This document shows positions 9,909 through 25,207 of a stretch of DNA of 39,674 nt, piece by piece (position 1 is the first letter of the stretch; every line of letters starts with the position of its first letter). The stretch is taken from contig JACPHN010000237.1 of NCBI GenBank assembly GCA_016188575.1, forward strand, positions 1 through 39,674. The letters run 5' to 3'. The translations under genes and the position numbers were made by a program. Under the pieces are notes generated by a model that was not told the DNA's origin, did not search any database, and saw only the letters and a program-made list of their open reading frames with translations. This stretch comes from Candidatus Schekmanbacteria bacterium (lineage in GTDB: Bacteria; CSSED10-310; JACPHN01).

Positions 9909-11456
9909 TCAGCGCTGCCGCTTGATCACAACGAGCGTGATGTCATCGTCGAGCGGACCGCTGCCGACAAACTGCTTTGCGTCGTTCATCAGGACTTCTA
10001 CGAGCTCGCTTGCAGGCTTGTCGATGTGATCTCTCAGCATCCCTTCGAAGCGATCGTAGTCGTACAGAGTGCCGTCCACAGCCTCGGCTTCGACTAGCCC
10101 ATCGGTATAGAGAATGAGTGCGTCCCCTGGTTCCAGGCCCGTAGACATGTTGGCGTATGATACCGAACCATCGAATCCAAGTGGTTTGCCGCCGACATCC
10201 AGCTCTTCGAGAGATTTCCTGCTCGACCGATAAACGTACGGGAAGTTGTGGCCGGCGTTCGAATAATGAACGGTTCCTGTAGGCACGTCGAGCAGGGTGT
10301 AGAAAAACGTCATGAGCAGCCGGCGCTGCGCCGACTCGGAAATCACCTTGTTCAGGGTGCCAAGGACATTGTCGGGAAGGGCCGAGCCCACCCGCACCTG
10401 TGTGCGCAAGCATGCTTTTGCCACGGCCATGATCAGGCCGGCAGCGACTCCGTGGCCATTGACGTCGCCAATCGCTACCGCGAGCTGCTCGTTGTCGTCG
10501 GTGCCACAGGTCGCAAAGTCATAATAGTCACCGCCGACCTCGCTTGCCGTGACGCACGCTCCCGCGATATCGTATCCAGGAAGCACCGGATTCTGCTGCG
10601 GCATGAGCGTCATCTGTATGGTCTTGGCGGTCTGTAGCTCTGCCTCCAGCCGCTCCTTGAGCGAGAGCTGCTCCATCTGTTTGATCAGGCTCGCGCGCAT
10701 TTCCTCGAACTTCGAGGCCAGCTTGAATACCTCATCGCGCGAGGTTGGAATGGCTACCGGGCACGTCAAATTGCCCTCAGCGATCTCTGTGGCATCGCGC
10801 ACCAGCTCCTTGATTGGGTTGGTGATGCGCCGCGACAAGGCGATGGCGACGAGGAGGCCGAGCACCACCAGAGCGACAGATTGATAGAAATTCGTGCGGC
10901 GCGCCGTTGCTATTGCTTCGATTACGCGCGCCCGCGAGAGCCCAAAGCGCACGAGCCCCCACCGCTTGTCCGTCTCCCCTCCAGGGACGAGCACGGCAGT
11001 GGCGAGATCCAGGATTGGTTCCCCATCAAAAGAAACAACCTTGATGTTCTGCCTGACCTCGTCACGCGCGCCCTTGCGGAGTGTCTCGACCACAAATGGG
11101 ATGTCGACGCGGATCGCGGAGTCCGCTGCAGTATCGTCCACGTGGAGATCGGTTTCTGTCTTTCCCTTGCGATCCGCATAAGCAATGATCTCGCCAGCTT
11201 CATTGAGAATCATACCAAAAACGACGTCTGGATCGGTCGCCGCTTGCTTGACCGTTCTGGCAAGAAAGACATAATCTCCGCCAGCGATCGCATTGGCGCT
11301 CGTCATGGAGACCAGTCGCGTCAGGAGCTTACCCTTTGCTTCCAGATTGAGGCTGAGAGTTTCCTGCTGCTTCATCGCGGCAACGTAGTTTGAGGTGGGG
11401 ACGACGATGAGCGCCACCCCCAAGATGCCGATCGTGATCTTTGTGCGAATGCTCAT
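9909..11456 (-). CDS. Membrane-bound SpoIIE/RsbU-type PP2C phosphatase with HAMP domain
   Basis: 515 residues: a transmembrane helix near residues 6-26, an extracytoplasmic sensor region (about 28-180) whose fold I cannot name, a second helix (SVALVVLGLLVAIALS, about 192-208), a HAMP domain (RRITNPIKELVRDATEIAEG), a short coiled coil and a PP2C domain from about 290. Phosphatase motifs are intact: EVGGDYYDF, VAIGDVNGHGVAAG, NAGHNFPYVY, LYTDGLVEA and DDDITLVV. Such proteins dephosphorylate anti-sigma-factor antagonists in partner-switching circuits. No STAS or kinase partner is encoded in this window. It is divergent from the 410-residue membrane protein that opens the T3SS region, so a regulatory link to secretion is possible but inferred only from position. 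Confidence 0.92.
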   Translation of the reverse strand: MSIRTKITIGILGVALIVVPTSNYVAAMKQQETLSLNLEAKGKLLTRLVSMTSANAIAGGDYVFLARTVKQAATDPDVVFGMILNEAGEIIAYADRKGKTETDLHVDDTAADSAIRVDIPFVVETLRKGARDEVRQNIKVVSFDGEPILDLATAVLVPGGETDKRWGLVRFGLSRARVIEAIATARRTNFYQSVALVVLGLLVAIALSRRITNPIKELVRDATEIAEGNLTCPVAIPTSRDEVFKLASKFEEMRASLIKQMEQLSLKERLEAELQTAKTIQMTLMPQQNPVLPGYDIAGACVTASEVGGDYYDFATCGTDDNEQLAVAIGDVNGHGVAAGLIMAVAKACLRTQVRVGSALPDNVLGTLNKVISESAQRRLLMTFFYTLLDVPTGTVHYSNAGHNFPYVYRSSRKSLEELDVGGKPLGFDGSVSYANMSTGLEPGDALILYTDGLVEAEAVDGTLYDYDRFEGMLRDHIDKPASELVEVLMNDAKQFVGSGPLDDDITLVVIKRQR

Positions 11457-12988: not shown

Positions 12989-13405
12989 CTACTTTCTCGA
13001 GATCGTCCCTTCCTTGATGCCATCGAGAAAAAGCGTGGCAAGTTGCCCACCGTCGCCCGCGGGGTCAAGGCTGATCGCCTTCTGAAAATGGGCCGTCGCC
13101 TGCGCGTCGTCGCCATCTTCGTAGTAGAGCTCGCCAAGTTTCGCCATCGCCATGGCACTCTTTGGATTGACATCCAGAGCCCGCTTGAGGGCATCGAATG
13201 CAGCTTTGCGGTGTCCCTCGTACACCGCGACTTCACTCAGGCCGATAAGCGGAATATCCGATTCCGGACGGACCGCCGACACCCCTTCAAAGATCGTGCG
13301 GGCAGCCTCGAAGTTCTTGTTATAGGTTTCGCAATACCCGATCTCGAGAAGGAGTCGAAGGTCTTCGGCGGCGACTTGCGCCAACTCGCGTGCCATCTCA
13401 GCCAT
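12989..13405 (-). CDS. TPR protein next to the needle gene, SctG (YscG/HrpB1)-like
   Basis: 138 residues made of about three tetratricopeptide-type helix pairs: LLLEIGYCETYNKNFEAAR, then IPLIGLSEVAVYEGHRKAAF, then AMAKLGELYYEDGDDAQATA with the canonical AISLDP end. In Yersinia and Pseudomonas the gene directly after the needle gene (yscG/pscG) encodes a TPR-fold chaperone that, with YscE/PscE, keeps the needle subunit from polymerising. Here the TPR gene likewise follows the needle-like gene in one minus-strand operon. The start is placed at 13405 (AGGAG about 10 bases upstream); a longer start at 13477 would add 24 residues rich in Arg and Phe. The chaperone role is inferred from fold plus position. 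Confidence 0.75.
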   Translation of the reverse strand: MAEMARELAQVAAEDLRLLLEIGYCETYNKNFEAARTIFEGVSAVRPESDIPLIGLSEVAVYEGHRKAAFDALKRALDVNPKSAMAMAKLGELYYEDGDDAQATAHFQKAISLDPAGDGGQLATLFLDGIKEGTISRK

Positions 13406-13518
13406 GCTGACGAAACTCCTGAGGCGATACTTGGAATAGAAAAAGCGGGAGAAGCCGGGTTTCGTCTTCTCCCGCACGGCCAGAACGTGCTGGTGCAGTG
13501 AAACAAACGGAAAAAACG

Positions 13519-13764
13519 TTACTTCATGTTCCGGATCGAGTTCATCACGTTGTCGTGTTTGGTCTTCATCACGTTCGACACCATGTTGTAGCGTCGAGAT
13601 TCTTGCTGAACCATTTCCTGGTTCTGCAGCATCTCCATGTTTTGCTGCTGCATCTGTGAGAAGAAGTTTCCAAAATCGACACCCGTATTATCCGGCATGG
13701 TCGGGACGTGCGGATCGAGAACCGGATTATTGGGGTTTGCGCCACCAACGCCTGTGACTGCCAT
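13519..13764 (-). CDS. Type III secretion needle-like subunit (SctF candidate)
   Basis: An 81-residue protein of needle-subunit size. It has an Asn/Pro-rich N-terminus (NPNNPVLDPH, then a MPDN turn), followed by an amphipathic helical region with many Met and Gln, ending RRYNMVSNVMKTKHDNVMNS. The end resembles the C-terminal helix of MxiH/PrgI/YscF needles, where Tyr-x-x-x-x-Asn-x-x-K-x-x-x-D recurs. Identity to known needles is too low to prove by eye. The three-gene context (105-residue protein, this protein, TPR protein) in the order yscE-F-G is the main support. GAGGAG lies 8 bases before the ATG. An SctI-like rod is the alternative, but a better SctI is encoded at 18771. Confidence 0.65.
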   Translation of the reverse strand: MAVTGVGGANPNNPVLDPHVPTMPDNTGVDFGNFFSQMQQQNMEMLQNQEMVQQESRRYNMVSNVMKTKHDNVMNSIRNMK

Positions 13765-13866
13765 TGAGATCTCTCCTCAGGAGGGTTGTTGTTGCCGAGA
13801 CGAACCAAGTAGCCCTGCAACCCTTATCGCGCGCGCGCGACGGATGTTGCGTACCGGTCGCGCATC

Positions 13867-17386: not shown

Positions 17387-17791
17387 ATGAAAATCGACTC
17401 AGGAAGCAGGATACCGCAGCTCCCGGAATGGCCCGAGCTGCCGAGCGCAGAGGAAGTGCAGCGGAAGTCGGTCGGGGGAAGTTTCTCAGCGGAGCTCGAG
17501 GCACTGTCGACGGCGGAAGAGATTGGGGCGAGCGCGAGCGCAAGCCCGGGCCCGGACTTGACGGCACTTCGTGCGAAACTGGCGGCAATCGATCCGACGG
17601 TCTGCGATACCCAAGACCAGGCCGTTCAGCTCGTCGTGGAATCTGCTCTGGAGGCGCACCGGGCGCTCAACGAGCTCTCACCAGAGCAACGCCAGGATCT
17701 TCGCGAAGCGCTTGTTGAGTTTCTCGACGCGGATCCGGACATGAAGCAGAGAATCCAGCGAGTCGTCGCACGAGTGGTGCAAGAGACTTGA
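17387..17791 (+). CDS. Small helical protein upstream of the T3SS sigma factor; possible FlgM-like anti-sigma
   Basis: 134 residues starting MKIDSGSRIPQLPEWPELP, with a Pro/Ser/Glu-rich, probably disordered N-terminal half and a helical C-terminal half (AVQLVVESALEAHRALNELS, then RQDLREALVEFLDADPDMKQ). I do not recognise the family. It lies 188 bases before the FliA-type sigma factor gene on the same strand. Flagellar FlgM anti-sigma factors share this layout (MKI start, disordered N-terminus, C-terminal helices that bind sigma-28) and are exported by the secretion machine. An anti-sigma role is therefore an attractive guess, but a chaperone or substrate is equally compatible. The start has TTGGAG 4-5 bases upstream; an in-frame ATG at 17228 would lie at the promoter's expected start site. 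Confidence 0.7.
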   Translation: MKIDSGSRIPQLPEWPELPSAEEVQRKSVGGSFSAELEALSTAEEIGASASASPGPDLTALRAKLAAIDPTVCDTQDQAVQLVVESALEAHRALNELSPEQRQDLREALVEFLDADPDMKQRIQRVVARVVQET

Positions 17792-17978: not shown

Positions 17979-18677
17979 GTGGTAGGGGTAGCCTTGATCG
18001 ACCGCGACAGAATGATTGAAGAATATGTGCCCTATGTGCGTGCAATCGCTGGAAAGGTGGCGAGCACCATATCTCGGTCAATCGACTTCGACGACTTGGT
18101 GGGATTTGGCAAGATCGGGTTGGTCGAGGCCGCGGATCGTTTTGATCCTCGCTATGGCGCCGATTTCAAGACCTTTGCCTACTATCGGATCCGGGGTGCC
18201 ATCTATGACGGCCTGCGCGGCATGGGGTGGCTGCGCCCGACCGAATACGCGCGGTTCAAGTTTGAGCGCGGCGCAGGTAACCTCATGGGAAACCTTGCCG
18301 ATCGCGGTATCTCCAGCGAGCGCGGAAGCCTTGGCGAGGAAGTTCAGGCGATCAGTGACGTCGTCCGGTCGCTTGCTTCGATCTTTGTGGTGTCGATGGA
18401 ATCGGTTGGGTGCTACGATGCTCCCGACGTTCCTGAGGGCCGGCCGGATACCATCCTGTCACGGACCGAGCTGGTGGGCTTGGTTCGCAAGGCAATTGAG
18501 GAGCTGCCGGACAAAGAGAGAGAGCTTATTCGACTCTACTACTATGAAGAGAAAACCCTGCAGGAAGTGGGAGAGGAACTGGGGCTGAGTAAGTCCTGGG
18601 TTTCCCGGCTCCACAGCCGCGCTGTCGAACGGCTAACGGCAGTGCTGAGCCAAGCCGGCGTTTACGACGCCGAATGA
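17979..18677 (+). CDS. FliA/WhiG-type (sigma-28 family) sigma factor of the T3SS locus
   Basis: 232 residues with the group 3 sigma layout. Region 2 has VPYVRAIAGKVASTI, IDFDDLVGFGKIGLVEAADR, FKTFAYYRIRGAIYDGLRGM, followed by WLRPTEYARFK. Region 4 has EELPDKERELIRLYYYEEKT and the helix-turn-helix LQEVGEELGLSKSWVSRLHS. This is the FliA signature and length (239 in E. coli), not an ECF factor. No flagellar gene is present, and the next gene, 93 bases downstream, begins the sctI-P run, so it probably drives T3SS genes. Start GTG 17979 has AGGAGAGAGG about 10 bases upstream; ATG 18012 is a possible shorter start. Confidence 0.9.
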   Translation: MVGVALIDRDRMIEEYVPYVRAIAGKVASTISRSIDFDDLVGFGKIGLVEAADRFDPRYGADFKTFAYYRIRGAIYDGLRGMGWLRPTEYARFKFERGAGNLMGNLADRGISSERGSLGEEVQAISDVVRSLASIFVVSMESVGCYDAPDVPEGRPDTILSRTELVGLVRKAIEELPDKERELIRLYYYEEKTLQEVGEELGLSKSWVSRLHSRAVERLTAVLSQAGVYDAE

Positions 18678-18770: not shown

Positions 18771-19262
18771 ATGGTCGACATTAGTGCACTCGGCGGGCCG
18801 GCAGCGGCAGGCGTCGACATCGCGAAGCAGGCAAGCGAGCAGTCCGTCAAGGACCAATTTTCAAAGTTTGACGAGATGATGTTGCACCGGCAGGGCGAAT
18901 CGCCTGAGGTCGACCAGATCCAGCAGGCGCAGCCGCAGCAGCAGAATGAGGCAGTCGCGGCGCCGGAGCGCATCGACCAGCCCGTCGAGGAGGTCCAGAA
19001 GACGAGCGAAGCGCAAATGCAGCGCATCTCGGACACGGCGAAGAAGGACCCGATCGCCCAGGTCTTGCAGGACCTTTCCTCCGGACACCGGAAACTGGAC
19101 CGCCTCGTAGAGCTCGCGTCGAGCAATACGCAGCTCTCGCCCACGCAGATGATCGCAGTGCAGGCCGGTGTCAACAAGATCACGGAAGAGCTCGAGATGG
19201 CAAGCAAAGTCGTCGAAAACGCCGTCTCTGGCTTCAAACAGACGATGCAGCAGCAAATCTGA
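18771..19262 (+). CDS. sctI: Type III secretion inner rod protein SctI (YscI/HrpB family)
   Basis: 163 residues. The N-terminal part is variable and Gln/Glu-rich. The C-terminal 45 residues carry the rod-protein signature: SPTQMIAVQAGVNKITEELE, then ASKVVENAVSGFKQTMQQQI, the pattern in which YscI/MxiI/HrpB rods end with two amphipathic helices and a polar tail. The rod links the export gate to the needle inside the basal body. It is longer than YscI (115 residues). Start 18771 is well supported by GGAGG 5 bases upstream. It directly precedes the sctJ lipoprotein gene, as yscI precedes yscJ in Yersinia. Confidence 0.88.
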   Translation: MVDISALGGPAAAGVDIAKQASEQSVKDQFSKFDEMMLHRQGESPEVDQIQQAQPQQQNEAVAAPERIDQPVEEVQKTSEAQMQRISDTAKKDPIAQVLQDLSSGHRKLDRLVELASSNTQLSPTQMIAVQAGVNKITEELEMASKVVENAVSGFKQTMQQQI

Positions 19263-19321
19263 TTGGTCGTATCCCAAGCGTGAGCGTCTACTCCGTCATC
19301 CCGTTGTCGTTGGGGGAAGAT

Positions 19322-20185
19322 ATGCATATGTGCCAGGGAGGCAGACTCCGCCGACAATGCGTATTGCTTGTCGTCGGATTGCTGCTGGTGGTGTCGTCGT
19401 CTGGTTGCAAGAAGACCATTCAGGAAGGACTGACGGAGGAAGAAGCAAACCTCATTTTGGTGAAGCTAAAAGAGAACAACGTTCTCGGCGAGAAGATTGC
19501 GGCAGGGGAGGAGGGCTTCGCTATTCAGGTGCCAAAGGACGACATCGCATCTGCATTGAGAATCATGGAAGATTCCAATCTCCCACGCAAACCATACCTG
19601 GGAATAGCGGACGTCTTTCCGGCAGGTGACCTCATCCCCACAGAAACCACAGAGAAGTTGCGCGCGCTGATGGCACTGCAAGGTGAGCTCGCCAACACCA
19701 TCATGCGCATCGAGGGAGTGATTGACGCCAGAGTCCACGTGGCGCTGCCAGAAGCAGACCCGCTGGCTGACCCGGACAAACCTGCGTCGAAGCCGAAAGC
19801 TTCTGTTCTCGTCAAGATTCGCGAGGGAACGAGCGTGAAGGTCGACCAGATCCAGAAGATCGTCGCCAACGCCGTTGACGGTCTCGACAATGCCTCTGTG
19901 GACGTCATGCCGACAGAGATCACATCCGTGAAAGTCACGGATGGCTCGGCGGAGTCTGTTCGCGTGCTGACCATCGAAGTCTTGGTAGGGAGTGCTTCTC
20001 GCCTGCGCGTGGTGCTTATCTGTACCGCATTGCTCGTGCTTGTCGCCGGTGGTGTTGCCGTGTGGTCGGCCCTGATGATGGGAGGCGCGCGCCGCGAGGC
20101 GGCGCGGTTGCGCGCGGAACGTGAGGCGCTGCGCGCGAAAATGGGCAAGTATCTCAAGCGACCCGCTACGGAGCGCGTTTCCTGA
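19322..20185 (+). CDS. sctJ: Type III secretion inner-membrane ring lipoprotein SctJ
   Basis: 287 residues. The N-terminus has positive charges, a hydrophobic stretch (CVLLVVGLLLVVSSSGC) and a lipidation Cys at about residue 29. Two ring-building domains of the YscJ/PrgK/FliF family follow: TEEEANLILVKLKENNVLGE, GFAIQVPKDDIASALRIM, DLIPTETTEKLRALMALQGE, LANTIMRIEGVIDARVHVAL and KASVLVKIREG. A C-terminal membrane helix (VVLICTALLVLVAGGVAVW) and short cytoplasmic tail end the protein. The lipoprotein form with one C-terminal helix separates SctJ from the larger flagellar FliF, so this is a non-flagellar injectisome-type system. The start at 19322 has GGGGGAAG just upstream. Confidence 0.96.
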   Translation: MHMCQGGRLRRQCVLLVVGLLLVVSSSGCKKTIQEGLTEEEANLILVKLKENNVLGEKIAAGEEGFAIQVPKDDIASALRIMEDSNLPRKPYLGIADVFPAGDLIPTETTEKLRALMALQGELANTIMRIEGVIDARVHVALPEADPLADPDKPASKPKASVLVKIREGTSVKVDQIQKIVANAVDGLDNASVDVMPTEITSVKVTDGSAESVRVLTIEVLVGSASRLRVVLICTALLVLVAGGVAVWSALMMGGARREAARLRAEREALRAKMGKYLKRPATERVS

Positions 20186-20309: not shown

Positions 20310-21311
20310 GTGAGTCTCTATGGACTTTCCAGGCGGCGAGCAGCGACGCTGCTGTTCGCCGTCCTCTTTGAAGGCGATCGCGCCAAGTCACTGGTGGAGC
20401 TGCTTCCCGAACGGGAGGCGGCGATCGTCAAGGAACACGTCAAGCGCTTGCTTGACGTTCCCAAGGACCGCCGACCCTCAGTCCTGCTACAGGAAATCCG
20501 CCGCCTCGCAAATCCCGGCAGCCGTGCGTTCCTGGAAGAGTTCCACCCCTCATGGATTGCGCACCTGCTGCGCAGCGAACCGGACATGGTCCGCGCTGCT
20601 GTTCTCGCGGTGTTGCCCCACCTTGGCGGCAACGGCGAGCTTCCGCCCCCAGCGGTGTCCGTGGCCAATCTCCCGGCCGAGATCTGTGAGCTCATTCGCG
20701 GGGACTTCGCCGGCAAGTTCCCTACCTGGCTCAGCGAGCTGAGCACGACCAGCTTTGACTTCGATGCCATCATGGGCGTCAGCCTCTCCATGCGCGAGCG
20801 GTTGGTCACCGACGTTGGCATGCAGCACCTTGCCATCGCCCTGCGCGGCGTGGAAAAGGCCGATCTCGCGCGCTTCCTGCGGCGCCTCTCCGCCCCGGAG
20901 CAGCGGGATTTGCTGCAGGTGCTCCGCGAGCTCACCGACATCTCCCTGCCGCAAGTCAAGGCTGCCCAGCAAAGCCTCCTCAACATGAACCTGGACAGTC
21001 AGGCTCCCGACGACATCGTCTGGCACGTCGGACTCTACCAACTCGCCGTCTCGCTCAGCCAGTCGCCTGCGGGCTATCGGCTTGCGCTCGCTTTCCGTCT
21101 ACCCTATCGATATGGAAGCCGCCTGCTCGAGCTGGGCGAGCAAATTCCGGTTCCCACCGGATTCGATCGCGCCACGGCCCGCAACGAGTTCGTCTCAGCG
21201 TTTCAGCGCCTCTTGCAGCGAGGCGCGGCTGACAAGGAGTGGGCGGCAGCCAAGGCCTCATTTGAAGCGATTCCCGATCCTCCCAAGGGCGACCCTGCCG
21301 GAGCAGGCTAG
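20310..21311 (+). CDS. SctK-position protein of the T3SS, with FliG-like segments
   Basis: 333 residues, no membrane segment, no signal peptide. It lies exactly where yscK lies, between sctJ and sctL. It is much longer than YscK (about 209 residues). Segments recall flagellar FliG: SLVELLPEREAAIVKEHVKR, FHPSWIAHLLRSEPDMVRAA (compare the FliG EHPQTIALLL motif) and DLARFLRRLSAPEQRDLLQV, followed by SLPQVKAAQQSLL. SctK proteins are thought to link the sorting platform to the inner ring, as FliG links the C-ring to FliF, so a FliG-related ancestry would make sense. The FliG resemblance is my reading and needs a profile search. Start GTG 20310 has GAGG 5 bases upstream; ATG alternatives are absent nearby. 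Confidence 0.7.
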   Translation: MSLYGLSRRRAATLLFAVLFEGDRAKSLVELLPEREAAIVKEHVKRLLDVPKDRRPSVLLQEIRRLANPGSRAFLEEFHPSWIAHLLRSEPDMVRAAVLAVLPHLGGNGELPPPAVSVANLPAEICELIRGDFAGKFPTWLSELSTTSFDFDAIMGVSLSMRERLVTDVGMQHLAIALRGVEKADLARFLRRLSAPEQRDLLQVLRELTDISLPQVKAAQQSLLNMNLDSQAPDDIVWHVGLYQLAVSLSQSPAGYRLALAFRLPYRYGSRLLELGEQIPVPTGFDRATARNEFVSAFQRLLQRGAADKEWAAAKASFEAIPDPPKGDPAGAG

Positions 21312-21368: not shown

Positions 21369-22082
21369 ATGAGTGGACGAATTCTTCGGGGTGATCAGGC
21401 AAACATCAAGCCTGCAAGTCGTGACCGCCTTTCTTCGCAGCCTGCGGGCCCGCTCACCAAAGGCGTCATCGATTCCGAGGTCTACAACGCCCTGACCGAG
21501 GCGCGAGGGATAATAGAGGAGGCTGAGCGCGAAAAGGCCGCCATTCTCAGTGAGGCGCAGAACGAGCTTACTCAGGCGAAGGCTGACGCGGAGGCGATTC
21601 GCAAGCAAGCCGAGAGCGATGGCGAAGCGCAGCGCAAGGCGGGCTTCGAAGCGGGCCGCGAGGAAGGGCTCGCGCAGGTTACTGACCTCATGTTGGCGGC
21701 ACGTGAGGAGCGCGAGAAGTTCCTCAAGGAAGCTGAGGGCGACATCCTGGAGCTCTCGATGGGAGTCGCCCGCAAGATTATCGGCTATGCGATCCAACTC
21801 GAGCAGGCCGTGATCGTGGACATCGTCAGCCAGGCCATACAAACGGTCCGTCACCAGAAGGAGCTGGTGGTCCGCGTTCATCCGGAAGATCTCGCGGCCC
21901 TGGAGACCAGCCGACCGCGGCTCATGGGACTCCTGACGCGCGCACGGGACCTCGTCATCCGCGGCGATGAAGCGATCACCCGCGGAGGCTGCATGATCGA
22001 TTCCGAGATCGGGACCATCGATGCCAGACTGTCCACACAGCTCGATGTACTCAAGAAGGTTCTCATGCGTCGCCACGCATAG
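21369..22082 (+). CDS. sctL: Type III secretion stator protein SctL (FliH/YscL family)
   Basis: 237 residues. The N-terminal 50 residues are polar, followed by a long Ala/Glu/Arg coiled coil (GIIEEAEREKAAILSEAQNE, then AEAIRKQAESDGEAQRKAGF with the typical GFEAGREEGLAQ) and a C-terminal globular domain (GVARKIIGYAIQLEQAVIVD, ELVVRVHPEDLAAL, GGCMIDSEIGTIDARLSTQL). These are the hallmarks of FliH/SctL, which binds the export ATPase and restrains it in the sorting platform, similar to the V-type ATPase stator. The ATPase gene follows after 21 bases. The ribosome-binding site is weak (AAGAG). Confidence 0.95.
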   Translation: MSGRILRGDQANIKPASRDRLSSQPAGPLTKGVIDSEVYNALTEARGIIEEAEREKAAILSEAQNELTQAKADAEAIRKQAESDGEAQRKAGFEAGREEGLAQVTDLMLAAREEREKFLKEAEGDILELSMGVARKIIGYAIQLEQAVIVDIVSQAIQTVRHQKELVVRVHPEDLAALETSRPRLMGLLTRARDLVIRGDEAITRGGCMIDSEIGTIDARLSTQLDVLKKVLMRRHA

Positions 22083-22103: not shown

Positions 22104-23459
22104 GTGGCTACAGGCCGCGTCATCAATATCCAGCAGTTTCTGGAGGCACTCGAACCCGCCTCCCCAGTCGCCGTCCGCGGCCGCGTAACCGAGGTCGTAG
22201 GACTCATCATCAAGGCCGCGGTTCCTGGCGTACGGATGGGAGAGGTGTGCCTCATTCACAATCACCACCAAAAAGAACCGCTGCGGGCCGAGGTGGTCGG
22301 CTTCAAGGATGAGCAGGCCCTGTTGATGCCGCTCGGAGAGCCGAAGGGCGTTGGTCTCGATTCAGAAGTCGTGCCGACAGGAAAACCGTTCTCCATCATT
22401 TGCGGCGACGCCATGCTTGGCCGGGTCGTCAACGGGCTCGGCGAGGCGATGGACGGGGGACCGCCACTGTTTGAGCTGCCCGGCATGGAGGAATGGGCGG
22501 TGGACCGACCCGCCCCCGACCCGATGACGCGAAAACGAGTAACCAAGCCACTTCCCATGGGCATCAGGGCCCTTGATGCCTGCCTCACGTTCGGCGAAGG
22601 TCAGCGCGTCGGACTGTTTGCGGGGTCAGGCGTAGGCAAGTCGACACTTATGGGCCAAATCGCTCGCAACGCTCTCTCCGAAGTGAATGTGATTTGCCTG
22701 GTGGGCGAGCGCGGCCGCGAGGTTCTCGACTTCATCGAGGAGTCGCTCGGCCCGGAAGGCATGAAGCGCTCGGTCGTCGTCTGTGCAACCAGCGACCGCC
22801 CAAGCCTGGAGCGGTCGAAGTGCTGCTTCGTCGCCACTGCCATCGCCGAGTACTTCCGCGATGTCAAATGCCGTAAGGTGCTCCTGATGATGGATTCGAC
22901 CACACGGTTCGCTCGCGCCCAGCGCGAGATCGGGCTCGCCGTTGGGGAGCCTCCTGCGCGACAGGGATACCCGCCTTCGGTCTTCAGCGAGCTCCCCCGG
23001 CTGCTTGAGAGAACGGGCAACAGCGACAAGGGCTCCATTACGGCTCTCTACACCGTTCTCGTTGCCGGCGGCGATATGGAAGAACCAATCGCCGACGAAG
23101 TACGCGGCATTCTCGATGGCCACATCATTCTCGATCGCGCTCTGGGCGCGCGAAACCATTGGCCGGCGATCAGCGTTCCGCCAAGCTTGAGTCGCGTCAT
23201 GAGCGGCATCGTTTCCGACAAGCACAAGAAGGCCAATGCCAAGATTCGCGAAGTGCTTGCCACGTACGATAAACAAAGAGATCTCATTCTGCTCGGCGCA
23301 TATCAGAAAGGCAGCGACCCAAAAACCGACTGGGCGATCGCCAAGATTGAGGCAGTGGAGAAATTCTTACGTCAGGGAGGGTACGAAAAGGTGACGTTCC
23401 AGCAGGTCGTCGACGGGGCGTGCGCGCTGTTTCGCGGCGATCCGGACTGGAAGGAATGA
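22104..23459 (+). CDS. sctN: Type III secretion ATPase SctN
   Basis: 451 residues, the usual size. The Walker A loop GLFAGSGVGKSTLMGQIARN is near residue 170, the Walker B strand and following signature KVLLMMDSTTRFARAQREIG near 256, and the ATPase-family motif PPSVFSELPRLLERTG near 290. GEPPARQGYP is also typical of FliI/SctN. It forms a hexamer at the inner face of the membrane that unfolds substrates and strips chaperones. The N-terminal domain (VRGRVTEVVGLIIKAAVPG) and MGEVCLI match. Start GTG 22104 has GGAGG 8 bases upstream. SctN and FliI cannot be told apart by motif alone, but the SctJ/SctI context settles it. Confidence 0.97.
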   Translation: MATGRVINIQQFLEALEPASPVAVRGRVTEVVGLIIKAAVPGVRMGEVCLIHNHHQKEPLRAEVVGFKDEQALLMPLGEPKGVGLDSEVVPTGKPFSIICGDAMLGRVVNGLGEAMDGGPPLFELPGMEEWAVDRPAPDPMTRKRVTKPLPMGIRALDACLTFGEGQRVGLFAGSGVGKSTLMGQIARNALSEVNVICLVGERGREVLDFIEESLGPEGMKRSVVVCATSDRPSLERSKCCFVATAIAEYFRDVKCRKVLLMMDSTTRFARAQREIGLAVGEPPARQGYPPSVFSELPRLLERTGNSDKGSITALYTVLVAGGDMEEPIADEVRGILDGHIILDRALGARNHWPAISVPPSLSRVMSGIVSDKHKKANAKIREVLATYDKQRDLILLGAYQKGSDPKTDWAIAKIEAVEKFLRQGGYEKVTFQQVVDGACALFRGDPDWKE

Positions 23460-23467
23460 GGTGACTC

Positions 23468-23962
23468 ATGGCCAAGCCCACGTATCGACTGCAGGTTCTG
23501 CTCGACATGAAGGAGAAGGCGGAAGATCAGGCCAAAGAGGAGCTTGCAACCGCCCAGAGAAACCTGAATGATGAGATCAAGCGGCTCGAGGCGATGAAAG
23601 TCGAGCTCAAGCGCATGCAGGACCACCGGACCGCGAAACGTGCCGAATACGACATGAAGGTCCGTTCTCGGCAGCTCAAACCACAGCAGATGCCGCAGGT
23701 CGATCAATTTCTGCGAAAGCTAGGCGAGGAGGAGAGTGCCTTTCAGGAGACGATGAAAGACCAGGAACGGCGCATTCAGGCGGCCGAGGCGGTGGTCGAG
23801 CAGGCAAAGGAAAAGCTGGTCGAAGCCGCCAAGGAAAAGAAGGCCATGGAGAAGCACAAGGAATCCTTCATGAAGCAGGCGCTGAAGGAAATGGCCGACA
23901 AGGAAGCCGATGCCCAGGATGAGCTTGGGCAGATGATCTTCATGAGCGGCCGCAACCGTTGA
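23468..23962 (+). CDS. sctO: Type III secretion central stalk protein SctO (YscO/FliJ-like)
   Basis: 164 residues, almost wholly predicted coiled coil: starts YRLQVLLDMKEKAEDQAKEE, the FliJ/YscO-type opening, and continues with alternating Lys/Glu heptads to the end. SctO is the gamma-subunit-like rod in the centre of the SctN hexamer that couples the ATPase to the export gate SctV. The gene follows sctN by 8 bases, the usual sctN-sctO arrangement, and has GAGG just before its start. Sequence of this family is poorly conserved, so the call rests on coiled coil, length and position. Confidence 0.88.
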   Translation: MAKPTYRLQVLLDMKEKAEDQAKEELATAQRNLNDEIKRLEAMKVELKRMQDHRTAKRAEYDMKVRSRQLKPQQMPQVDQFLRKLGEEESAFQETMKDQERRIQAAEAVVEQAKEKLVEAAKEKKAMEKHKESFMKQALKEMADKEADAQDELGQMIFMSGRNR

Positions 23963-24043
23963 CGCGAATTCGCGATAATTGGCTAGTGGAGCGTCGTGGC
24001 TCACCCACCGCGGTTGCTCGGTTTCGCAAGGAAGGAAACGAAC

Positions 24044-25207
24044 ATGGAGACCAAAGGCGTATCGACGACAACTTCGTCGCTAGGCGCGGCCATGCAGGCC
24101 GCCAATGATAAGCTGAAAAAATCCAAGGAGCTTGGGAAGTCCTTCGGCGAGCTGATCGACGAAGGAGGCACCGAGGGAGCGCAAGGCCTTCCACGCGGTG
24201 GCGCGGCCGTCGGGCCCAAGCCCGGCCCGATGCGCGGGGAGTCGGGGCGCGCCACCGGGGAGACACCGGCGCCTCGTTCAACTCCCTTGTACGCGGAAGA
24301 GCCGCCGCGCCAGGGTCCTGGAGGCCCTTCCCATAGCCCCGGCAAGCCCAGCCGCGACATCGGCGCGGCAGGTCTGGATCGGTTCTTGGGGTTAGGGGGA
24401 AACAAGCAGGCTGAAGCGCCGCGAAAACCAAAAGGAGGTGGCGATCTGCCGGCGCGCGGTGAAGGAACCGGTGCGACTGGCGGGTCCGAGCTTCCTCGTC
24501 TCTCCACGGAAGGCGGCAAGGGAGCGGAAAGACTGGAAGGGAAGAAAGTCCGGGATGAGGCGAAGGATCACGGGTTCAGCGAAGAGGACAAGCTGCTCGG
24601 ATTCGACAAGAAGACCGACTCTACTCGAGGCGACAGGACTGCGACCCTGAAAGATGAGGCCAGGCTGCCTGAGCAAGCCGGGCCGGCGCCCGTCGAAGCA
24701 CAGCTACAGCCGCCTTTGATAAGGGAAGCTCCCCGCGTCGAGGCGGCCGAGGCCGCACATGCTGCGGGACGCACACTGCCGCCAGACGTGATTCGGCAGA
24801 TGGTCGATCGCGCCCGGGTCCTCACGGACAGGCTGGGAAATCAGACCATGCAGATCGACCTCAGCTCGCACTTGCTCGGCGGCGGGCTGTCGCTTGACAT
24901 CAAAATCGTAGACGGCGCGGTGCAGGCCACTTTCCGTGCCGAGACTGCGGAAATCGGAGCCATGATCGAGAACACGATCCCCGAGCTCGCCAAGCAGATG
25001 GAGGCGGGCGGCATGAAGCTCGGCGAGGCGTCGGTGGACGTGGGCGGAGGGTCGGGTGGTCGCCGTGGCGAAGAGGGCGGCGAGGCGGACAATGGGGCGG
25101 GCACCGGGCCAGGTGCAGGGCACGAGGCCTCGACGCCAACCGGCGCGACGGCGGCCGACGACACACGTGGCCGGCGCTCCCCGGATACCACGGATTACGT
25201 AATCTGA
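24044..25207 (+). CDS. sctP: Type III secretion needle-length regulator SctP (FliK-like C-terminus)
   Basis: 387 residues. The first 240 are Pro/Gly/Glu/Lys-rich and of low complexity, as expected for a molecular ruler. Residues about 245-335 form a folded domain resembling the FliK/SctP substrate-switch domain: DVIRQMVDRARVLTDRLGNQ, IDLSSHLLGGGLSLDIKIVD, GAVQATFRAETAEIGAMIEN and GGMKLGEASVDVG. In that family the strand-rich domain contacts the autoprotease SctU and changes substrate class once the needle is complete. A Gly/Glu-rich tail ends the protein. The start at 24044 has AAGGAAGG upstream; an in-frame GTG at 23996 is less likely. The locus stops here: the genes that normally follow (sctQRSTU) are not present. 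Confidence 0.85.
   Translation: METKGVSTTTSSLGAAMQAANDKLKKSKELGKSFGELIDEGGTEGAQGLPRGGAAVGPKPGPMRGESGRATGETPAPRSTPLYAEEPPRQGPGGPSHSPGKPSRDIGAAGLDRFLGLGGNKQAEAPRKPKGGGDLPARGEGTGATGGSELPRLSTEGGKGAERLEGKKVRDEAKDHGFSEEDKLLGFDKKTDSTRGDRTATLKDEARLPEQAGPAPVEAQLQPPLIREAPRVEAAEAAHAAGRTLPPDVIRQMVDRARVLTDRLGNQTMQIDLSSHLLGGGLSLDIKIVDGAVQATFRAETAEIGAMIENTIPELAKQMEAGGMKLGEASVDVGGGSGGRRGEEGGEADNGAGTGPGAGHEASTPTGATAADDTRGRRSPDTTDYVI

What the first reader, a model, noticed from the sequence alone, without database searches (positions are those of the whole stretch)
17979..18677. A FliA-type sigma factor dedicated to a non-flagellar T3SS
A complete sigma-28 family factor lies directly before sctI, with no flagellar genes around. 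Known injectisomes are mostly controlled by AraC-type activators, ECF sigma factors (HrpL) or two-component systems, so a flagellar-type sigma factor inside an injectisome locus is unusual. It could be an ancestral trait shared with flagella or a recruitment.
Basis: partly seen in the sequence, partly recalled or inferred. Interest (0 to 1): 0.7.

Follow-up and report, generated by a model that had tools for sequence, protein, structure and literature searches.

The report
Flagellar-type sigma factor for predatory secretion
A gene-switch protein of the kind that normally turns on flagella has become a dedicated switch for a different machine, the myxobacteria-type secretion system used to break open prey bacteria, and the DNA signals it probably reads point to that machine's missing list of injected enzymes.

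Summary
A scan of 84,980 genomes gave 65 relatives at 39-50% identity. All 65 lie in T3SS loci of one kind, the 'Myxo' or 'needleless' T3SS* that Myxococcus xanthus uses to lyse prey. They form one clade apart from flagellar FliAs (100/99 support) with a swapped -35 recognition helix (SKSWxSR for xESRVxQ). A matching promoter, GCAAC-N16-18-CGATAA, has sigma-28 geometry and -10 element with a new -35. It lies upstream of T3SS genes in most of these loci (75 hits against 1 in shuffled sequence) and is enriched genome-wide where the sigma occurs. In M. xanthus and in this genome it sits before genes for proteins without Sec signals, several with peptidoglycan-degrading or -binding domains: candidate T3SS* effectors, which reviews call unknown. 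Best reading: a dedicated sigma-28 subfamily that switches on the T3SS and its effectors. Direct binding is untested. A conserved gene just upstream is a possible secreted anti-sigma (speculative).

The parts
17979..18677 (+). FliA/WhiG-type sigma factor of the T3SS (regions 2 and 4; divergent region 3; recognition helix SKSWVSRLH)
17387..17791 (+). conserved gene directly upstream of the sigma gene (134 aa from ATG 17387): disordered N-terminus with an SFxxxL motif, helical C-terminus; candidate anti-sigma or T3SS substrate (speculative)
   Evidence: homologues a few bp upstream of (or slightly overlapping) the sigma gene in most myxobacterial loci; alignment A2, 17-29% identity to the window protein; no Pfam match; AlphaFold model helical at 58-133, mostly disordered before
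18771..19262 (+). sctI (inner rod), by position and family profile
   Evidence: conserved in T3SS loci; no Pfam hit
19280..20185 (+). sctJ, inner-membrane ring lipoprotein
   Evidence: PF01514 2e-26, TIGR02544 145 bits
20310..21311 (+). FliG_C-domain protein at the sctK position
   Evidence: PF01706 7e-12; 11 of 12 homologues match FliG_C
21369..22082 (+). sctL/FliH stator
   Evidence: PF02108 7e-22
22104..23459 (+). sctN ATPase
   Evidence: TIGR02546 598 bits, just under its 604.75 cut-off
23468..23962 (+). sctO/FliJ-like stalk protein
   Evidence: PF16789 3e-22
23952..23978 (+). sigma-28-like promoter GCAAC-N16-CGATAA directly before sctP
23996..25207 (+). sctP/FliK-like length-control protein (probable start ATG inside the ORF)
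   Evidence: PF02120 1e-9
13824..13850 (-). sigma-28-like promoter GCAAC-N16-CGATAA, 59 bp before the small T3SS gene
   Evidence: same place in 42 of 54 relatives
13519..13764 (-). small T3SS-locus gene 'X81' (81 aa; C-terminal 50 residues conserved in these T3SS loci)
12989..13477 (-). TPR protein, LcrH/SycD-like chaperone of the T3SS
   Evidence: TPR models; conserved next to X81

Best explanation
The gene encodes a sigma-28 (FliA/WhiG) subfamily sigma factor that belongs to the myxobacterial-type, needleless T3SS (T3SS*). It most likely joins core RNA polymerase and starts transcription at a dedicated promoter class, GCAAC(T)(TT)-N11-GCCGATAA (variants with 1-2 more bases of spacer). This promoter keeps the sigma-28 -10 element and geometry but has a new -35 element, matching the changed recognition helix. 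Its targets are T3SS operons and a scattered set of genes for proteins without Sec signals, several with peptidoglycan-degrading or -binding domains, probably the T3SS substrates that lyse prey. In myxobacteria the promoter precedes the run X81-TPR-up-sigma-sctI-sctJ, so the sigma gene is probably in its own regulon. Flagellar FliA and FlgM in the same genome are separate. Shown: gene, linkage, phylogeny, motif, motif position. Inferred: that this sigma reads the motif, and that the target proteins are secreted.
For: 1) Linkage: all 65 relatives at 39-50% identity lie in T3SS loci, 62 of 63 complete ones with sctI directly downstream. T3SS loci of the same broad group without the sigma (L080, L081, L082) also lack the motif. 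2) Own clade: 100/99 support, separate from 32 FliA/WhiG-type rows including the genome's own FliA. 3) Most carriers are not flagellated: 32 of 37 genomes have no rod genes; M. xanthus AM003 has no other FliA-type match at E<=1e-15. In G067, G084 and G095 a second FliA lies in the flagellar cluster, and flagellated carriers have FlgM. 4) Recognition helix: K, W and R are invariant in 35 of 35 T3SS sigmas where FliA/WhiG have E (27 of 32), R (32 of 32) and Q (32 of 32). 5) Promoter: 75 exact GCAAC-N16-18-CGATAA hits in 1.19 Mb of T3SS loci against 1 in shuffles; within 250 bp upstream of X81 in 42 of 54 loci. 6) Genome-wide: 734 sites against 49 for the reversed pattern in 25 carriers; 128 against 56 in 21 non-carriers; Mann-Whitney P 2e-6. 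7) Targets: in M. xanthus 9 of 12 sites, and in this genome 9 of 16, are within 100 bp upstream of an ORF, against 4% expected. They include sctU on another contig (PF01312 2e-106) and PG_binding_1 proteins, an Amidase_2 protein in M. xanthus, and LysM-SLT and CHAP proteins in Citreicoccus; these peptidoglycan-directed proteins have no hydrophobic N-terminus. 8) T3SS* is needed for prey lysis (PMC12075869) and its effectors are called unknown (PMC10433427).
Against: No binding, transcription or secretion data. The motif was found in T3SS loci, so T3SS sites are not independent support. In G000 the raw count (16 against 6) is no better than in non-carriers (128 against 56); only the positions support it there. 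G060 (20 against 11), G084 (4 against 2) and G097 (8 against 3) are weak. Gene calls are by a simple script. In the small 'Deltaproteobacteria' genomes 23-96 sites per genome include some doubtful targets, and one of them (G067) also has a flagellar FliA. M. xanthus has a published sigma factor SigF linked to social motility (cited in PMC9548883); whether it is this gene could not be checked, because the paper is not held.
Confidence: 0.82

Rival explanations
1. The promoter motif is read by another regulator or by the flagellar FliA; the T3SS-linked sigma controls something else or little.
For: Binding is not shown; G000 and five of the 37 other carriers searched are flagellated; some non-carriers have a modest excess of the pattern (G011 12 against 1, G007 16 against 2).
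Against: Motif enrichment follows the sigma, also in genomes without flagella or any other FliA-type match at E<=1e-15 (M. xanthus, G088, G096, G075). The -10 and spacing are those of sigma-28, and the -35 change goes with the helix change. Relaxed scans of the own flagellar loci found no convincing promoters of this class.
Confidence: 0.08
2. It is a second flagellar FliA that merely sits in a T3SS locus and still serves flagella.
For: FliA-family sequence; the genome is flagellated.
Against: A separate FliA sits with flhBAFG and FlgM with rod genes; 32 of 37 carrier genomes have no rod genes; own clade.
Confidence: 0.02
3. It is the counterpart of M. xanthus SigF and mainly controls type IV pilus (social) motility, with the T3SS only a side target.
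For: AM003 has only one FliA-type sigma at E<=1e-15; SigF is linked to S-motility and rises during predation (PMC9548883; PMC10849154).
Against: SigF's sequence family is unverified here (paper not held). Motif targets read in M. xanthus are the T3SS and candidate effectors, with no evident pilus gene among them. Carriers include lineages far from Myxococcus.
Confidence: 0.08

Closest known systems
FliA (sigma-28) of flagellated bacteria
   Same: Regions 2 and 4; -10 GCCGATAA and -35/-10 geometry of its promoters; serves a type III export machine and its substrates
   Different: Lies in a non-flagellar T3SS locus; recognition helix K/W/R instead of E/R/Q; -35 GCAAC(TTT) instead of TAAA(GTTT); region 3 divergent; no recognisable FlgM in the non-flagellated carriers searched
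WhiG (Streptomyces) and other non-flagellar FliA-type sigmas
   Same: FliA/WhiG family member put to a non-flagellar task
   Different: WhiG falls among the FliA rows, not with the T3SS clade; the T3SS sigma is linked to one secretion system
Chlamydia sigma-28
   Same: FliA-type sigma in a T3SS-bearing bacterium
   Different: ChIP-seq finds only hctB and tsp as targets (PMC12282069); not a T3SS-wide regulon
HrpL (ECF sigma of plant-pathogen T3SS; from general knowledge)
   Same: Functional analogue: one alternative sigma for T3SS and effector genes
   Different: HrpL is an ECF sigma with a different promoter (hrp box); a different subfamily
Myxo 'long' NF-T3SS / needleless T3SS* (mxan_2434-2464)
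   Same: The machine this sigma belongs to; gene order sctI-J-K-L-N-O shared
   Different: The papers read here do not mention the sigma or its promoter, and call the effectors unknown; in G000 the genes are spread over at least three contigs

Membership tests
FliA/WhiG sigma family (TIGR02479) | Sigma-70 regions 2 and 4 and best match to FliA/WhiG models | tested here: met
FliA/WhiG sigma family (TIGR02479) | Curated score cut-off (189.6 bits) | tested here: not met
   145 bits: relative or divergent subfamily, not a curated member
Flagellar FliA | Encoded with flagellar genes | tested here: not met
   the flagellar FliA is elsewhere
Flagellar FliA | FliA recognition-helix signature ESR(V/I)xQ | tested here: not met
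   0 of 35 T3SS sigmas; SKSWxSR instead
Flagellar FliA | Sigma-28 promoter: -10 GCCGATAA, N11 spacing, -35 TAAAGTTT | tested here: inconclusive
   -10 and spacing kept, -35 replaced by GCAAC(TTT) in the linked motif; binding itself not tested
Flagellar FliA | FlgM anti-sigma partner | tested here: not met
   FlgM above cut-off only in flagellated genomes, 5 of 15 searched
Myxo NF-T3SS (T3SS*) | sctI, J, L, N, O, P in conserved order, R-S-T-U and V present | tested here: met
   SctV on C195, R-S-T-U on C227
Myxo NF-T3SS (T3SS*) | No secretin and no canonical needle | not tested
   No secretin or needle family hit among the window ORFs scanned; rest of genome not searched
Myxo NF-T3SS (T3SS*) | Role in contact-dependent prey lysis | not testable with these tools
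   Known for M. xanthus (PMC12075869)

The most novel reading that the evidence does not exclude
The T3SS runs a complete flagellum-like checkpoint of its own. The small conserved protein encoded just upstream of the sigma (17387-17791) would hold the sigma inactive and be exported through the T3SS (it carries an N-terminal FxxxL motif like those in SctI, SctP and X81), releasing the sigma to express effectors once the machine works: a FlgM-type switch built from an unrelated protein. The promoter class would then list the whole T3SS* effector repertoire, including prey-lysing peptidoglycan hydrolases.
Probability: 0.2. Interest if true: 0.92.

Novelty: new variant of a known kind. Interest (0 to 1): 0.8.

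Why it matters
The Myxo T3SS is placed at the base of non-flagellar T3SSs (Abby and Rocha 2012, PMC3459982). A conserved sigma-28-type factor and a FliG-like protein in it make the link to flagella more concrete, at the level of regulation too. In practice, T3SS* is needed for prey lysis but its effectors were unknown as of 2023. The promoter GCAAC-N16-18-CGATAA gives a short gene list in myxobacterial carriers (12 sites in M. xanthus AM003), containing an unsignalled peptidoglycan amidase and other unsignalled proteins, which turns that open question into a direct experiment in a laboratory strain.

Tried and rejected
E. coli-type TAAA-N15-GCCGATAA promoters in T3SS loci: no perfect hits, one-mismatch hits at shuffle level; two-mismatch hits pointed to the real motif. 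FlgM homologue for the T3SS sigma: none above cut-off outside flagellated genomes; the upstream protein has no FlgM or other convincing Pfam match, and its fold search gave nothing (best E 2.2). E. coli-like FliA promoters in the own flagellar loci: none convincing, so the flagellar FliA's own promoter was not defined. SigF identity in M. xanthus: paper not held.

Full report
WHAT IS THERE. The ORF at 17979-18677 (+) is a complete sigma factor: Pfam regions 2 and 4, best curated models FliA/WhiG, WhiG and FliA, all below their cut-offs, nearest solved structures FliA and WhiG. Downstream on the same strand are sctI (by position and profile), sctJ, a FliG_C-domain protein at the sctK place, sctL, sctN, sctO and sctP. 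On the minus strand, 12989-13764, are a TPR (LcrH/SycD-like) chaperone and a small protein (here X81) whose C-terminus is conserved in the T3SS loci of this group. The rest of the machine is on other contigs: sctV on C195, sctR-S-T-U on C227.

FLAGELLA IN THE SAME GENOME. The genome (9.2 Mb, 275 contigs, 94% complete) has rod genes, a flhB-flhA-flhF-flhG-fliA run on C164 and FlgM beside rod genes on C117. The flagellar FliA is 40% identical to the window protein.

DISTRIBUTION. The two best relatives outside the genome were both next to sctJ. A profile of the three found 67 loci in 84,980 species genomes. Two are weak unrelated hits (26% identity); the other 65 are 39-50% identical, all with T3SS genes around them, and 62 of 63 complete ones have sctI directly downstream. 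They are mainly Myxococcota (Myxococcus xanthus, Corallococcus, Archangium, Hyalangium and others) and 'Deltaproteobacteria' MAGs. The locus is the Myxo NF-T3SS of Abby and Rocha (PMC3459982), known in M. xanthus as T3SS* (mxan_2434-2464; PMC12075869); the match of locus to mxan numbers is by gene content, not by locus tag. Neither text holds the word FliA, and neither links a sigma factor to the system. In 37 carrier genomes, 32 lack rod genes, and M. xanthus AM003 has no other FliA-type sigma at E<=1e-15. In three flagellated carriers whose second match was read (G067, G084, G095), that FliA follows flhA-flhF-flhG. T3SS loci of other types in these lineages (L080, L081, L082) have neither this sigma nor the motif.

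PHYLOGENY AND SIGNATURE. In a 67-row tree all 35 T3SS sigmas form one side of a branch with 100/99 support, and in all 200 bootstrap trees examined; the own flagellar FliA and WhiG are outside. The tree cannot be rooted safely (long branches noted by the program), so ancestral trait versus recruitment is undecided. The region 4.2 recognition helix reads SKSWxSRLH in 35 of 35, against E (27 of 32), R (32 of 32) and Q (32 of 32) at the K, W and R places in the FliA/WhiG rows; region 2.4 also has a fixed G where FliA has D (29 of 32).

PROMOTER CLASS. Aligning sequence upstream of X81 in 22 myxobacterial loci showed two conserved blocks, GCAAC and CGATAA, at near-fixed spacing. GCAAC-N16-18-CGATAA occurs 75 times in 1.19 Mb of T3SS loci and once in shuffles that keep dinucleotide frequencies, and within 250 bp upstream of X81 in 42 of 54 loci. 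With N16 the geometry is 8+11+8, that of the known sigma-28 promoter (TAAAGTTT-N11-GCCGATAA, general knowledge): the -10 is kept and the -35 is new, as the changed helix would lead one to expect. In the window it lies 59 bp before X81 (13824-13850, -) and directly before sctP (23952-23978, +). A copy with GAAAC for GCAAC stands 15 bp before the ORF that follows sctV on C195.

REGULON. Genome-wide, the pattern outnumbers its reversed control 734 to 49 in 25 carriers and 128 to 56 in 21 non-carriers (Mann-Whitney on per-genome log ratios, P 2e-6). The excess in non-carriers shows that the reversed pattern is an imperfect control, and in G000 the count alone (16 to 6) proves nothing. Position does carry weight: 9 of 16 sites in G000 and 9 of 12 in M. 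xanthus AM003 lie within about 100 bp upstream of an ORF in the right orientation, against 4% expected. Leaving out the two window sites, 7 of 14 in G000 still do. The G000 targets outside the window are sctU (PF01312), two PG_binding_1 proteins and four unknown proteins; four of the six non-sctU proteins begin with a probably disordered stretch that holds a D-x-Y(E/S) motif (motif read by eye). The M. xanthus targets include a PG_binding_1 plus Amidase_2 protein and a protein with a weak alpha/beta-hydrolase match; those of Citreicoccus include LysM-transglycosylase and PG_binding_1-CHAP proteins. The peptidoglycan-directed ones have no hydrophobic N-terminal stretch. T3SS* is required for prey lysis (PMC12075869) and its effectors were stated to be unknown in 2023 (PMC10433427). 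These genes are therefore good effector candidates (inference).

HOW IT PROBABLY WORKS. The sigma starts transcription of T3SS operons and scattered substrate genes from this promoter class. In myxobacteria the promoter precedes the whole X81-TPR-up-sigma-sctI run, which would mean positive autoregulation. What keeps the sigma off is unknown. FlgM is confined to the flagellated genomes. A small gene just upstream of the sigma (a few bp away in most myxobacteria) encodes a protein with a disordered N-terminus and a helical C-terminus and an N-terminal SFxxxL motif that resembles short F-motifs in SctI (FDEMM), SctP (FGELI) and X81 (FGNFF). An exported anti-sigma is an attractive but unproven idea.

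COMPARISON. FliA is the nearest known kind in sequence and in logic (one alternative sigma for an export machine's substrates). The protein fails the FliA tests of locus, recognition helix and FlgM partner, so it is a new subfamily rather than a FliA. Chlamydia sigma-28 is the nearest precedent of a FliA-type sigma in a T3SS bacterium, but its regulon by ChIP-seq is hctB and tsp only (PMC12282069). HrpL does a similar job for plant-pathogen T3SSs with an unrelated ECF sigma (general knowledge).

LIMITS. No experiment; gene calls by a simple script; exact pattern only; AM003, not DK1622, was scanned; the library holds only open-licence papers, so an earlier description of this sigma (possibly as SigF) cannot be excluded.

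Noticed in passing
20310-21311 (+) and homologues in L078, L083, L079, L110 and others: A FliG_C-domain protein sits at the sctK place; 11 of 12 homologues match FliG_C, 5 FliG_M, 2 FliG_N. Abby and Rocha state that Myxo systems lack FliG. It could be an intermediate between the flagellar switch protein and SctK.
   Followed up: partly
13519-13764 (-) and L078, L079, L080, L081, L082: Small protein family 'X81' with a conserved C-terminal stretch of about 50 residues next to a TPR chaperone in most T3SS loci of this group, no convincing Pfam family; two copies in L078. Possibly the missing needle- or YscX-like component.
   Followed up: partly
G061, G067, G075, G085, G088, G096 and similar genomes (loci L219-L262): In small 1.4-3.7 Mb 'Deltaproteobacteria' genomes the promoter occurs 23-96 times, with three spacer classes (N16, N17, N18); targets, judged by eye, include a transglycosylase-like protein with an SFSEEL N-terminus, a patatin-like protein and a metallopeptidase-like protein. 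A very large candidate substrate regulon.
   Followed up: partly
L017 10428-15471 (C195 of the genome): TPR chaperone, SctV, then a 762-aa protein of unknown family with a GAAAC-N16-CGATAA site 15 bp upstream; possible large T3SS substrate or translocator.
   Followed up: partly
L107 (BNCN01000014.1, 'Comamonas sp. KCTC 72670'): The record carries a Myxococcus-type T3SS locus with a 46% identical sigma; the genome is probably mislabelled or contaminated.
   Followed up: no
9909-11456 (-): HAMP-SpoIIE phosphatase gene a few kb from the T3SS genes; SpoIIE-type phosphatases often control anti-sigma switches. Conservation of its linkage was not checked.
   Followed up: no
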